A DNA stretch of 64,000 nucleotides from Fusobacterium ulcerans (GTDB lineage: Bacteria > Fusobacteriota > Fusobacteriia > Fusobacteriales > Fusobacteriaceae), in the NCBI RefSeq assembly GCF_003019675.1, contig NZ_CP028105.1, forward strand, positions 3,364,282-3,428,281, written 5' to 3'. Shown here one piece after another: positions 11,705-53,514 of this stretch. The position numbers and the translations under genes were made by a program. Under the pieces are notes generated by a model that was not told the DNA's origin, made no database searches, and saw only the letters and a list, made by a program, of their open reading frames with translations. Every line of letters begins with the position of its first letter. The stretch's first letter is position 1.

Positions 11705-12679
11705 CTAAAATTGAGCCAATGCCCTTATTTTTTTTATTTTTTCAGTTTTTTCAATTGCTGTCATTTCTTGAATATAATGATCTCTTGTGACAGTTGTATT
11801 TTTATGATATGCTATTAATGCCCCATCATCTATACTCCCTAATTTAGTCACAATATTAACAATTGTTTTTCTTAAAGTGTGTGGATATAAATCCTCAATG
11901 TTTAATATTTTTCCTATCTTACGTACTCTTGCTCGTATTGTTTCACGAGACATATTTTTATATTTTCCATTATATTTTGTAATTAAAAAGTCATCTATTT
12001 TTATATTATTTTCTTGCCTCCATATGAGATATTTATTTATCAAAACCTTTGTTTCCTCTGATATATAAACTTCTCTCATTTCTCCACCTTTTTGCTTTAT
12101 ATTTATAAATACATCATTTTTTAAATCTAAATTGCTTATTTTTAAACGAGTCATTTCCCCTATTCTAATAGCACTATCAATAAAAATATTAAAAATTATT
12201 TTACTTCTGATATCAAATTTTTGTGGCTGTAATTCCATTTGTTGCTTTATAAATTTAATTTGTTCTATTGTTAAAAAATAACTATTTCTTCTTTTGTCCA
12301 ACTTAGATTTTTGTTGTCTTTCTATGTCTAATACAGGATTAAAAATTATTTTTCTTGTTCTTCTAGCCCAAATATAAAAACTTGAAAGAGCAGTTATTTT
12401 ATTATTAACAGTAACTTTATTGTTTCCCCTTTCTCTAACACAATACATCATATACCTATCTATTATTTCTGGAAATTCATTTAATGTTTTTTTATCAAGC
12501 AGATAATACCCTTTATCTTTTGTATGAAACCATTTTAGAAATAAATTCATATTACTTTTATAAGTTTTGTAGGTTGTGTCTGCTGTGTCAATTGACTTTG
12601 AAATTTTACTTTCAAGATACATTTTATAAATTTCATTGTTTTTTTTAAAATTATCTCTAAAAAAAGTTTTCAAAAACAT
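11705..12679 (-). CDS. Tyrosine site-specific recombinase, candidate fibre-tip recombinase
   Basis: A 324-residue XerC/D-like enzyme with an N-terminal SAM-like core-binding domain (about 20-110) and a complete catalytic set: Arg172 (SAIRIGEMTRL), Lys197, His267 and Arg270 (PHTLRK), His292, and nucleophile Tyr302 (TRDHYI). It cuts and religates DNA through a 3'-phosphotyrosine link. It sits directly downstream of the tail-fibre gene and its two spare tips, inside the late operon, and not at a prophage end. The terminal recombinase is instead a large serine enzyme at 52021-53514. This favours a DNA-rearrangement role at the fibre locus, although phage integrase cannot be excluded. Start ATG 12679 has GGAGAAGCAA. 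Confidence 0.85.
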   Translation of the reverse strand: MFLKTFFRDNFKKNNEIYKMYLESKISKSIDTADTTYKTYKSNMNLFLKWFHTKDKGYYLLDKKTLNEFPEIIDRYMMYCVRERGNNKVTVNNKITALSSFYIWARRTRKIIFNPVLDIERQQKSKLDKRRNSYFLTIEQIKFIKQQMELQPQKFDIRSKIIFNIFIDSAIRIGEMTRLKISNLDLKNDVFINIKQKGGEMREVYISEETKVLINKYLIWRQENNIKIDDFLITKYNGKYKNMSRETIRARVRKIGKILNIEDLYPHTLRKTIVNIVTKLGSIDDGALIAYHKNTTVTRDHYIQEMTAIEKTEKIKKIRALAQF

Positions 12680-12733: not shown

Positions 12734-12755
12734 GTTTTCGCAAGCTTGCGAAAAC
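12734..12755. repeat. Perfect 22-bp palindrome upstream of the recombinase gene
   Basis: Bases 12734-12755 form a perfect palindrome with central AAGCTT and outer arms GTTTTCGC/GCGAAAAC, more GC-rich than its surroundings. No T-run follows on the minus strand, so it is a poor terminator for the fibre transcript. It could be a recombinase crossover site, an operator, or an mRNA-processing hairpin. The rest of 12680-12942 has no gene. It also holds a hairpin AGAAAAT/ATTTTCT near 12812-12828 and a degenerate TTAGAG motif at 12793-12798. Confidence 0.5.
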
Positions 12756-12923
12756 TATATTTTTAAATTATAATTTTTATAAAAATATCTACTCTAATTT
12801 CCAAATCTAACAGAAAATTTGATTTTCTTAGAAATTAAAAAGCTAGTATTTTCAAGGCATTCACACTTTTATCTTTAAAGAGGGAAAAGGGAATTTTGTC
12901 TATCCCCTATTCATAACCACCTA

Positions 12924-12940
12924 ATTAAATAATTCTCTAA
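12924..12940 (-). repeat. Fibre-tip cassette boundary repeat, copy D (distal end)
   Basis: On the minus strand this reads TTAGAGAATTATTTAAT, one base shorter in the central T-run than copies B and C. It begins three bases after the stop of the last cassette and no open frame follows it, so it closes the array. Confidence 0.55.
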
Positions 12941-12942
12941 AC

Positions 12943-13203
12943 TTAATACCCTATAGCAAAATACATAAAAAAATCGGCAACAGGTGCTTCAGTTAAAAAA
13001 ATAAAGCCAGTTTTATCCATAGAATCTGTTTCTATAGCTTGTTTGTTTATTCCACCACTTGTGTAATCTGTAAGGAATACTCCTAGACATTTGTTAGGAA
13101 AAGGTTTATCAAATAAAACTCGGGCTTCATGTTTAGCTGCAACATCTTTAATTTTTATTATTATTTTATTGTTTAAATTATTAATTGTAAATAAATTCTC
13201 TAA
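12943..13203 (-). pseudogene. Silent tail-fibre tip cassette 3 (no start codon)
   Basis: An open frame of 86 codons begins at repeat copy C (13203) with Leu-Glu-Asn-Leu-Phe and ends in the aromatic motif FMYFAIGY before a stop. Phage fibre C-terminal domains of the gp53-like class commonly end in such a motif and contain FPNxCLGV-like stretches, as here (FDKPFPNKCLGVFLTDYTSGG). No start codon or ribosome site precedes it. The first internal ATG would remove most of the domain. If joined at the repeat to the expressed fibre gene it would be read in phase, giving a different receptor-binding tip. It is called a pseudogene only because it is not expressed in the present arrangement. Confidence 0.65.
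13187..13203 (-). repeat. Fibre-tip cassette boundary repeat, copy C
   Basis: Minus-strand TTAGAGAATTTATTTAC. Its first 16 bases are identical to copy B. The stop codon TAG of cassette 2 overlaps its second to fourth bases. Confidence 0.7.
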
Positions 13204-13466
13204 TCCTGTTCTATAACAAGATAATTAAATTGGGGAGAATAATCTGAAGAAGATTGAAGAACAATTATTCCAAAACCGGAAGTATTTATACTATAAAGTT
13301 TTATTTTAGTTGTAGATAAAGTTGCAACAGAGTAAATTTCTTCTCCCACTATTACTAAAGGAGGTTTTTTATATGTTTTTTTGAAAGAAATAGCTATCTT
13401 TTGTCCAGAATAAGCTTTATTTATTCCCAACTTCCCAACTTCAATAATTTTAAATAAATTCTCTAA
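13200..13466 (-). pseudogene. Silent tail-fibre tip cassette 2 (no proper start)
   Basis: An open frame of 88 codons starts at repeat copy B (13466) with Leu-Glu-Asn-Leu-Phe, immediately after the stop codon of the expressed fibre gene. The sequence (KKTYKKPPLVIVGEE, then INTSGFGIIVLQSSSD and a C-terminal QFNYLVIEQD) looks like a compact beta-rich tip similar to H-type lectin or fibre-end domains. The only possible start is a TTG at 13430 without a convincing ribosome site. In-phase fusion at the repeat would give a complete alternative fibre C-terminus. Confidence 0.65.
13450..13466 (-). repeat. Fibre-tip cassette boundary repeat, copy B
   Basis: Minus-strand TTAGAGAATTTATTTAA, placed directly after the TAA stop of the fibre gene (13467-13469). 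Confidence 0.7.
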
Positions 13467-14618
13467 TTATATTCTTAGTACATATACTGATATAACCATA
13501 GTATTTGTAGAAAAGCCTGTTTGTCTATCTACCAATATATTATCTGTATTTATATTTAGAGAAAATGAAAATGGTTGTTTAATATCTGCAGAATAAAAAC
13601 CAGATAATTCCAATCCAGAAATTGCTTTAGAAGTAAATATTTTTGTTCTAGTGTAACTGTAATCACCTAGATAAAATCCCATATTAACAAAAACAATATC
13701 ATTTTCTATAAGTTTTTTTGTAAAAGTCATAGGAGTTTTAAATTTAAATTCTGTCGGTTCCAATGCCCAAAAACCTTTTAGATTCTCTAATTTGTTTCGA
13801 TTTTGAAAAACTGATAATTCTTCAAAGTTTGCGTTAGGAGCGGTCAAAGATGAACCACTATAATTTTCTACACATACATAAAACTTATTTGTTGCTGGAA
13901 GTAAGTATATTCCTTCTTTTACTGCTGTTGTAAGTGGAAAAGTTCCACTATATCCACCTGCTAGTCCATTTATTTTATTTACTATTGCTGGTCCTTGTCT
14001 TGCATCTAAAATTTTCCCTTCATCTACAGTAATTAAATTATTTTCTACATCATCTTTATTTGCTTTTTTAGTAAATAATTCATTTATAGATTCCCATATA
14101 GTTTTTGCAGTTGTAAGAAGCCTACTATCAGTCATATCCTGCTTTTTTTCTAATTCTTTTTCCAGATATTCTTTATCTATCCAAAATTCTTTTCCACTCC
14201 AATTTACTACCAAACTTTCTAAAGATGTAGCTATTATATTAAAATGATTTTTCAATTTTACTGGAGCAGTACTCTGAGTTGGTAAATAAGAAGCTTCATT
14301 CCCATCATTTACATACCAATATAAAACTTCTACTCCTTCATCTTCTACATATATTCCAAATTCTCGTGGAAAATATCCTTCAGTTACTCCATCATTATCC
14401 ATTTGGATTGTAAGTCTTACTGCATCTTGTATTTGGGTTTTCTCAGATATTCCTACCTCTTTTTTTAAGCTTTTTACATCTATAAACTTTGCTGGATCTT
14501 CTGTTTCTTCAAGCAATCCATTACCTATCTTTACTTTAACAAATTTTATAGGAAGTTCATTTGCTTTACACTTAGCTTGATACATACTTCCTGCATTTGT
14601 AAATCCATTATATTTCAT
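13467..14618 (-). CDS. Tail fibre protein with exchangeable C-terminal tip
   Basis: 383 residues. The N-terminal 160 residues match the P2 gpH/phage tail-collar fibre domain that attaches to the baseplate (NGFTNAGSMYQAKCKANE, VRLTIQMDNDGVTEGYFPREFGIY). A middle segment (KDDVENNLITVDEGKILDARQGPAIVNKI) is the fibre shaft-type repeat. The last 107 residues begin at LENLKGFW, exactly at repeat copy A, and form a beta-rich tip unlike the two spare tips downstream. It recognises the host surface. It overlaps the gpI gene by 4 bp. Confidence 0.85.
   Translation of the reverse strand: MKYNGFTNAGSMYQAKCKANELPIKFVKVKIGNGLLEETEDPAKFIDVKSLKKEVGISEKTQIQDAVRLTIQMDNDGVTEGYFPREFGIYVEDEGVEVLYWYVNDGNEASYLPTQSTAPVKLKNHFNIIATSLESLVVNWSGKEFWIDKEYLEKELEKKQDMTDSRLLTTAKTIWESINELFTKKANKDDVENNLITVDEGKILDARQGPAIVNKINGLAGGYSGTFPLTTAVKEGIYLLPATNKFYVCVENYSGSSLTAPNANFEELSVFQNRNKLENLKGFWALEPTEFKFKTPMTFTKKLIENDIVFVNMGFYLGDYSYTRTKIFTSKAISGLELSGFYSADIKQPFSFSLNINTDNILVDRQTGFSTNTMVISVYVLRI
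13774..13790 (-). repeat. Fibre-tip cassette boundary repeat, copy A (inside the expressed fibre gene)
   Basis: Minus-strand TTAGAGAATCTAAAAGG. It shares TTAGAGAAT and then A/T-rich bases with copies B-D, and is read as Leu-Glu-Asn-Leu in the same phase as the spare cassettes. The identity after position 9 is partial. Confidence 0.55.
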
Positions 14619-52020: not shown

Positions 52021-53514
52021 ATGATAAAAGAAAGATTACAAAAATTAGCTATTGAATTAGGACATCCTCCTCAAGCTTATCTCTATGCTAGAATATCCAG
52101 AGAAGATTACAAGGATGAAACTAATCCACAACATGCCATTGAAAGTCAACTTTCTATTTTAAGAAGAGTTGTTAGTGAGAATAACCTTAATGTATATAAA
52201 GAAAAAGCTGAAATAGAAAGTGGTGTAACTGCTGAAGATGCACAAAGAGAAATTCTTGAACTTATAAAATCTAGAACTATAAATATATTAATAATTAAAG
52301 ATTGGTCAAGATTTGCAAGAAATAGAGCTTGGGCTGAAAAAATGCTTGATTATGCTGAGTTATTTAAAAAAACATTTATTTTATATTCTCTTTCAGATAG
52401 GGAGGGAGTATATAATCCAGTTGCTAGAATGTATTGGGATTTAAATAATGTATTTAATGCGCAATATGTTAGAGATATCGTATCTAAGATGAAAACAGCA
52501 AAAGAAGAAAGTGCTAAGCAGGGATTCTATATGACTAGACTCTTTGGTTATATGAGAGTAAATAAAAAAACTTACCCTGACACAGTAGAACCTCTAAAAG
52601 CACAGATTGTAAGAGAGTTACATGATTTATTTGATAAAGGTAAGTTTAAAAATAAACACCAAATGTTAGACTACTGCAAAGAAAAATATCCTCAATATAA
52701 GTTTGACTATACACGAATTGATAGTTTCTTCTTTAATCCTGCATATAAAGGAACTGTTATATATGGGAAAGTTAAAACATACAAAGGAAAAATAATAATG
52801 GAAAATACTGAAGAAGAAATAATTGAAGTAAATAACTCTCCAAATATTATTCCTCTGATTCCTCCAGCTCTTTGGGATAAAAACAATCTTAAACTAAGAC
52901 AGGTTACAGAAGTATATAGAGCAAAAAGTGAGGGAGCATATTTGTTTTCTGGTAAAATCTTTTGTTATTGTGGTTCAAAAATATATGGAAATGAAGAATA
53001 CTACAAATGCAATTCAAATTCTATAAATGAAAATCATAAGCATTCAAATAATAAGATTATATGTGACTGGAAACCAAAAAGAGTAGAGGTTTTAGAAAAC
53101 TATATCCTTGATAAAATAATTACTGAATTTAATCATATTGAACATTGTAATACCTCTTTGGATGATGAAATAGAAGCTCAACTTGAATTTTTAAATGAAA
53201 ATATTGACAAATGTAATAAATACATTAAAAACATTAAAGAAAGTACTAAAATTGGTATTTACACACCATTAGAAGCAAAAAAAGAAATAGAAAATATAAA
53301 TAAAGAATTATACAGACTTGAAAAAGAAAAAAAATCTCTTGAAGAAAAGAAAAAACAACAAAGTTTAGATATAAATAAAGAAGAAATATTTAAATTAATT
53401 ATTGAATATAGCAAAAAAAATAATAGAGTTATGCTTAAACGATTGCTTAATTGCTATATATCTAGAATAGTGTTTTTCAATTATTTTAATGCTGAAATTT
53501 ATACATATTTTTAA
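52021..53514 (+). CDS. Large serine recombinase, probable phage integrase
   Basis: 497 residues: resolvase domain with nucleophile Ser26 (YLYARISRED), IESQLSILRR, ILIIKDWSRFARN; recombinase domain (TRLFGYMRVNKKTYPDTVEP, FNPAYKGTVIYGKV); zinc ribbon (IFCYCGSKIYGNEEYYKC); and a C-terminal coiled coil (LYRLEKEKKSLEEKKK) typical of directional integrases. It is the last gene at the right edge of the prophage, the usual position next to an attachment site. Confidence 0.9.
   Translation: MIKERLQKLAIELGHPPQAYLYARISREDYKDETNPQHAIESQLSILRRVVSENNLNVYKEKAEIESGVTAEDAQREILELIKSRTINILIIKDWSRFARNRAWAEKMLDYAELFKKTFILYSLSDREGVYNPVARMYWDLNNVFNAQYVRDIVSKMKTAKEESAKQGFYMTRLFGYMRVNKKTYPDTVEPLKAQIVRELHDLFDKGKFKNKHQMLDYCKEKYPQYKFDYTRIDSFFFNPAYKGTVIYGKVKTYKGKIIMENTEEEIIEVNNSPNIIPLIPPALWDKNNLKLRQVTEVYRAKSEGAYLFSGKIFCYCGSKIYGNEEYYKCNSNSINENHKHSNNKIICDWKPKRVEVLENYILDKIITEFNHIEHCNTSLDDEIEAQLEFLNENIDKCNKYIKNIKESTKIGIYTPLEAKKEIENINKELYRLEKEKKSLEEKKKQQSLDINKEEIFKLIIEYSKKNNRVMLKRLLNCYISRIVFFNYFNAEIYTYF

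What the first reader, a model, noticed from the sequence alone, without database searches (positions are those of the whole stretch)
11705..12679. Tyrosine recombinase inside the fibre block while a serine integrase sits at the prophage end
The phage carries two complete site-specific recombinases. The serine one lies at the right edge, where an integrase is expected. The tyrosine one lies between the fibre tip cassettes and a putative fibre-assembly gene, in the late operon. This suggests division of labour, with the tyrosine enzyme acting on the fibre repeats, similar in concept to Mu Gin or shufflon recombinases but from a different enzyme family.
Basis: inference. Interest (0 to 1): 0.7.

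Follow-up and report, generated by a model that had tools for sequence, protein, structure and literature searches.

The report
Tail-fibre tip shuffler in Fusobacteriota prophage
The phage's second recombinase belongs to a family that flips and swaps the receptor-binding tips of the phage's tail fibre; in this prophage the array looks frozen, because the inverted site that flipping needs is gone, and the same tip set sits in a second prophage of the same bacterium.

Summary
A complete tyrosine recombinase (11705-12679, -; R172, K197, H267, R270, H292, Y302 kept) lies behind a tail fibre and two silent tip cassettes. A large serine recombinase sits at the other prophage end. Each tip opens with an 11-bp site, TTAGAGAATYT, in frame (LENL/F). 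Homologues (about 40% identical) in Fusobacteriota phages sit at the same place: 27 of 42 non-redundant loci have a matching '+' site in the fibre and a '-' site just before the recombinase (null 0/210 and 2/241). One genome carries three copies of one prophage differing, over 9 kb, almost only by inversions whose breakpoints fall inside TTAGAGAATTT. So the family is a tail-fibre shufflon of the Rin type (known from Bifidobacterium and Eggerthella prophages). In this window all four sites are direct: the terminal inverted site is missing, so inversion should be impossible. The 1014-bp tip module is also present, one mismatch, in a second prophage of the same genome that has another fibre stem and no recombinase. 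Relatives also carry a second small invertible segment after the recombinase whose sites keep the arms but change the 4-bp spacer.

The parts
11705..12679 (-). Tyrosine recombinase (shufflon type), 324 aa, catalytic R172 K197 H267 R270 H292 Y302
13467..14618 (-). Tail fibre gene: constant stem 13791-14618 plus the expressed tip 1 (13467-13790)
13780..13790 (-). Recombination site 1 inside the fibre gene, TTAGAGAATCT (codes LENL)
13456..13466 (-). Recombination site 2, TTAGAGAATTT, right behind the stop of tip 1
13200..13466 (-). Silent tip cassette 2, 88 codons from the site, no start codon or ribosome site at its head; weak H-type lectin match
13193..13203 (-). Recombination site 3, TTAGAGAATTT
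12943..13203 (-). Silent tip cassette 3, 86 codons; Gp53-like C-terminal tail-fibre tip (PF21882, above cut-off)
12930..12940 (-). Recombination site 4, variant TTAGAGAATTA, followed by only 9 codons (probable scar of a lost cassette)
12782..12925 (.). Truncated remnant of the small second invertible segment (intact and inverted in L125)
12734..12755 (.). Perfect 22-bp palindrome GTTTTCGCAAGCTTGCGAAAAC between array and recombinase, role unknown
52021..53514 (+). Large serine recombinase at the prophage end, the presumed integrase

Best explanation
The gene encodes the DNA invertase of a tail-fibre tip shufflon, not the integrase. In the family (shown by comparison): a constant fibre stem ends in an 11-bp asymmetric site; alternative receptor-binding tips, each opening with the same site in frame, lie between it and an inverted copy just before the recombinase gene; recombination between opposed sites inverts the DNA between them and joins a new tip to the stem. 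In this window (inferred): the array is a derived, direct-only form. A deletion removed the terminal inverted site together with one arm of the neighbouring small invertible segment, so the expressed tip can no longer be exchanged by inversion. What remains possible is loss of a tip between direct sites or exchange with another phage at a site; the module is in fact shared between this prophage and a second one in the same cell.
For: Inversion in the family: three copies in genome G014 are identical over 9 kb (100%, apart from one aligned block at 99.9%) except for inversions with breakpoints inside TTAGAGAATTT and one more small inversion after the recombinase. Co-occurrence 27/42 against nulls of 0/210 and 2/241. 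The recombinase lies inside the shufflon clade, next to L028, L018, L086 and L097 (support 96/95); L028 has the same site sequence in about ten copies of both orientations and shares the baseplate-fibre region at 79%. Tips 2 and 3 resemble known binding folds. Direct-only state; remnant of the second segment. Shared module: 1014 bp, one mismatch, left boundary 5 bp before site 1, in a second prophage at 2.677 Mb of the same genome, where no other recombinase of this family was found. Integration-independent.
Against: No rearranged version of the window's own array was found. Its recombinase has the longest branch in the tree (1.25) and departs at 6 of 46 columns conserved elsewhere, against 0-2 for most others, so it may be decaying or may have changed specificity. 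The prophage attachment sites were not found, so the serine enzyme's role as integrase is inferred.
Confidence: 0.82

Rival explanations
1. The enzyme works on the direct sites in this window: it excises tip 1 so that tip 2, then tip 3, joins the stem, and circles can re-insert, so the array is a one-way or integron-like tip changer.
For: Four direct sites, each tip in frame from its site. L036 and L039 are identical up to and through a site and then differ by one whole cassette lying between two direct sites.
Against: Rci, which works alike, joins inverted sites only and does not excise (PMC4176322). In the three G014 variants array length is unchanged. The L036/L039 flanks on the recombinase side are only 87% alike, so that event may be an exchange between phages. 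A direct-only array would be lost quickly if excision were frequent.
Confidence: 0.2
2. The tyrosine enzyme is the phage integrase and the serine enzyme has another role.
For: It is annotated 'integrase' in Funu1 and phiRTG5 and matches general integrase families. Attachment sites of the window were not found.
Against: In the annotated relatives it sits in the late region between fibre and lysis genes, its sites lie in the fibre array, and those relatives carry a serine recombinase or Mu-type transposition genes.
Confidence: 0.03
3. The recombinase here is a relic: its array was replaced by a foreign module and the enzyme is no longer selected.
For: Longest branch in the tree, 6 of 46 conserved columns changed, terminal site gone, order of parts changed (recombinase after the small-segment remnant).
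Against: The frame is intact over 324 codons and every catalytic residue is kept; its clade partner L028 has the identical site sequence.
Confidence: 0.3

Closest known systems
Rin shufflon of Bifidobacterium prophages (PMC6109161)
   Same: Constant receptor-binding stem, several C-terminal tip cassettes, short asymmetric 11-bp sites inside the gene and before each tip, XerD-like tyrosine recombinase next to the array, separate integrase elsewhere, very dissimilar tips.
   Different: Other phylum; site TTAGAGAATTT instead of TTCCCTAACCC; the Fusobacteriota family often has a second small invertible segment behind the recombinase; this window's array has direct sites only. Direct sequence kinship to Rin was not tested.
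Rin-like shufflon of Eggerthella lenta clade 1 prophages (PMC8778435)
   Same: Tyrosine recombinase apart from the integrase, tip genes with H-type lectin domains (weakly matched by cassette 2 here), short crossover repeat.
   Different: 8-bp repeat ttccgtat, other phylum; no direct-only or shared array mentioned in the passages read.
Rci shufflon of plasmid R64
   Same: Tyrosine recombinase, multiple inversions exchanging C-terminal segments, asymmetric sites.
   Different: Acts on a pilus adhesin of a plasmid; 31-bp sfx sites; Rci has an extra C-terminal domain (PMC11852207) for which there is no room here (22 residues after the catalytic Tyr).
Mu Gin, P1 Cin, p15B Min
   Same: Invert phage tail-fibre gene ends.
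   Different: Serine recombinases; unrelated enzyme class.

Membership tests
Rin-type phage receptor-binding-protein shufflon | XerD-like tyrosine recombinase beside the receptor-binding gene, distinct from the integrase | tested here: met
   serine recombinase at the other end
Rin-type phage receptor-binding-protein shufflon | Constant stem plus several promoterless alternative tips opening in frame at a short repeat | tested here: met
Rin-type phage receptor-binding-protein shufflon | At least one site in inverted orientation, so that inversion is possible | tested here: not met
   All four sites are direct; no opposed site within one mismatch near the array. Met in 27 of 42 related loci. 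The window is therefore described as a derived form, not filed as a working shufflon
Rin-type phage receptor-binding-protein shufflon | Observed rearrangement with breakpoints in the sites | tested here: inconclusive
   Shown for homologues; for the window only a module shared with a second prophage, bounded within 5 bp of site 1
Rin-type phage receptor-binding-protein shufflon | Sequence kinship of the recombinase to Rin itself | not tested
   The Rin protein sequence was not obtained
R64 Rci shufflon | Rci-like C-terminal extension behind the catalytic domain | tested here: not met
   Only 22 residues follow Tyr302; feature stated in PMC11852207
Gin/Hin/Cin serine invertases | Serine recombinase catalytic domain | tested here: not met
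   PF00589, tyrosine family
Phage integrase (function) | Gene next to attP at a prophage end and dependence of integration on it | tested here: inconclusive
   Gene lies in the late region, about 2 kb inside the left end, not beside the presumed integrase end; att sites not found

The most novel reading that the evidence does not exclude
One recombinase serves two independent invertible modules by reading the same arms with different 4-bp spacers (tips versus a small segment before the downstream late genes), and it can also serve, in trans, tip arrays of co-resident prophages that lack their own enzyme, so that tip modules are traded between phages at the sites.
Probability: 0.35. Interest if true: 0.65.

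Novelty: new variant of a known kind. Interest (0 to 1): 0.5.

Why it matters
It places receptor-tip shuffling by a tyrosine recombinase across Fusobacteriota phages, where I found no report of it (PMC open set), with natural inversion variants already in databases. It bears on how these phages, including those of F. nucleatum and F. necrophorum, may vary host range. The spacer rule in the second segment is a testable way for one enzyme to keep two switches apart, and could give a new orthogonal inversion tool.

Tried and rejected
Single-sequence scans of viral contigs and genome contigs found no relatives; the alignment search did. A generic most-repeated 11-mer search gave mostly low-complexity hits and was replaced by a motif with reading-frame and position rules, so those rules were set after looking at the loci. 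The att search between guaA and the serine gene found nothing convincing, and relatives have other neighbours behind guaA, so no empty site could be shown. Promoter or terminator content of the small invertible segment: no signal above shuffles for promoters, no consistent terminator. The more distant homologues in other large phages (L016, L046-L049, L051, L054) show no such sites in the same test, so the claim is limited to the closer clade. The integrase reading was rejected on family evidence. A structure prediction was not run, since the fold class is clear from sequence.

Full report
What is there. The ORF 11705-12679 (-) is a 324-aa tyrosine recombinase of the Xer/integrase family; its closest solved relatives by profile are XerA, XerD and XerH. 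Alignment with eight homologues keeps R172, K197, H267, R270, H292 and Y302. A large serine recombinase lies at 52021-53514, 15 bp from a convergent gene followed by host-type genes, and guaA lies at the left edge.

The array. Reading the - strand, the fibre gene contains TTAGAGAATCT in frame (LENL) at 13780-13790. The expressed tip ends right at a second site, a second tip frame opens there (88 codons), a third tip opens at a third site (86 codons), and a fourth variant site (TTAGAGAATTA) is followed by only nine codons. Three exact sites within 600 bp are not expected: the whole window has 4 against 0.76 by chance, and no shuffle of 100 reached 4. Tip 3 matches the Gp53-like tail-fibre tip family above its cut-off; tip 2 matches an H-type lectin weakly, below the cut-off. 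Tips 2 and 3 have no start of their own at the head of the frame, so they should be silent unless joined to the stem (inference).

The family. Homologues of about 40% identity were found in Fusobacterium phages Funu1 and phiRTG5, in genomes of the phylum and in IMG/VR. In the annotated records they sit behind the fibre gene and before late or lysis genes. Their upstream regions carry the analogous site: TTAGAGAATTT, TTACAGAATTT, TTGGAAAATYT, TTGAATAATCT and others, characteristic of a lineage, in both orientations, with tips on both strands. A test with fixed rules ('+' site opening a frame of at least 55 codons, '-' site 25-130 bp before the recombinase, at most one difference) passes in 27 of 42 non-redundant close loci, against 0 of 210 Markov shuffles and 2 of 241 shifted anchors. 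The duplicates were chosen by hand, and the rules were written after the pattern had been seen in these loci, so the fraction is descriptive; the nulls show that it is not chance.

Inversion seen. Genome G014 has three copies of one prophage (L082-L084). They are identical over 9 kb, apart from two mismatches in one aligned block of the first pair, except for inversions whose breakpoints lie inside TTAGAGAATTT, the same site as in the window, and a small inversion behind the recombinase. Whether they are three insertions or three assembled states of one phage was not settled. G001 (L022) shows gaps and doubled cassettes in its array, as expected if the assembler met mixed arrangements; that is suggestive only. 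L036 and L039 are identical up to and through one site and then differ by one whole cassette between two direct sites.

Not the integrase. Funu1 has a recombinase/resolvase-type gene at its other end and phiRTG5 carries Mu-type transposition genes, so the module travels with different integration modes. The window's own att sites were not found.

This copy is a derived form. The window has no opposed site; nothing within one mismatch lies near the array on the other strand. In L125, the region matching window 12802-12923 is inverted and belongs to a small invertible segment with an intact left part. The window keeps only a truncated version, which fits one deletion taking the terminal inverted site and one arm of that segment (inference). 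L043 shows a parallel case: its terminal site has lost three bases and its array is direct-only. Rci inverts but does not excise (PMC4176322); if this enzyme behaves likewise, the window's array is frozen. The recombinase falls in the shufflon clade beside L028, L018, L086 and L097 (96/95) but on the longest branch, with 6 of 46 conserved columns changed.

A shared tip module. Window 12782-13795 occurs with one mismatch in 1014 bp in a second prophage of the same genome at 2.677 Mb, which has another fibre stem. Identity starts five bases before site 1. No other recombinase of this family was found in the genome, nor on the IMG/VR copy of that prophage (L126, a record that may be a fragment). 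The direction of transfer is not shown; the second prophage has the flank also seen in L125, which suggests that the window received the module.

A second address. In 21 of 42 close loci a pair of inverted sites lies just behind the recombinase, about 140-185 bp apart, with the same arms (NATT-4-AAT) as the cassette sites but another 4-bp spacer, for example AATT-ACAG-AATTT against AATT-ATTG-AATTT in L020 and GATT-GAAT-AATCT against GATT-TCAT-AATCT in L042; 0 of 420 shuffles gave such a pair. The segment is found flipped between relatives. The comparison of spacers was made by eye from these outputs. Its role is unknown; promoters and terminators gave no signal.

What is known. The Rin shufflon of Bifidobacterium prophages (PMC6109161) and its Eggerthella counterpart (PMC8778435) have the same architecture with other sites. 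I found no paper on such a system in Fusobacterium phages in the open library, which holds only part of the literature. Verdict: a tip shufflon of known kind in a new group, here in a direct-only, probably frozen variant.

Noticed in passing
G000:C1:3076711-3076733 (L132), host CRISPR array: One of 23 spacers (36 nt) spans a fibre-stem/tip junction at the recombination site: 34/36 to the second prophage, 29/36 to the window. A tip switch would destroy this target, so shuffling could help escape CRISPR.
   Followed up: partly
about +25 to +225 bp behind the recombinase stop in L014, L020-L022, L024-L031, L033, L039, L042, L043, L052, L085-L088: Second small invertible segment with the same site arms and another 4-bp spacer; flips between relatives; function unknown.
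   Followed up: partly
G000:C1:2677238-2678251 (L127) and L126: Second prophage carries the identical tip module with no recombinase of this family found; a possible substrate in trans.
   Followed up: partly
window 12734-12755: Perfect 22-bp palindrome just upstream of the recombinase, role unknown.
   Followed up: no
G001 (L018, L022): Runs of N in both tip arrays and doubled cassettes in L022, suggestive of mixed arrangements in the sequenced culture.
   Followed up: no
G010 and G009 downstream of guaA (L120, L121): Other inserted elements next to guaA in relatives, with phage tail genes in G010: a possible insertion hotspot.
   Followed up: no
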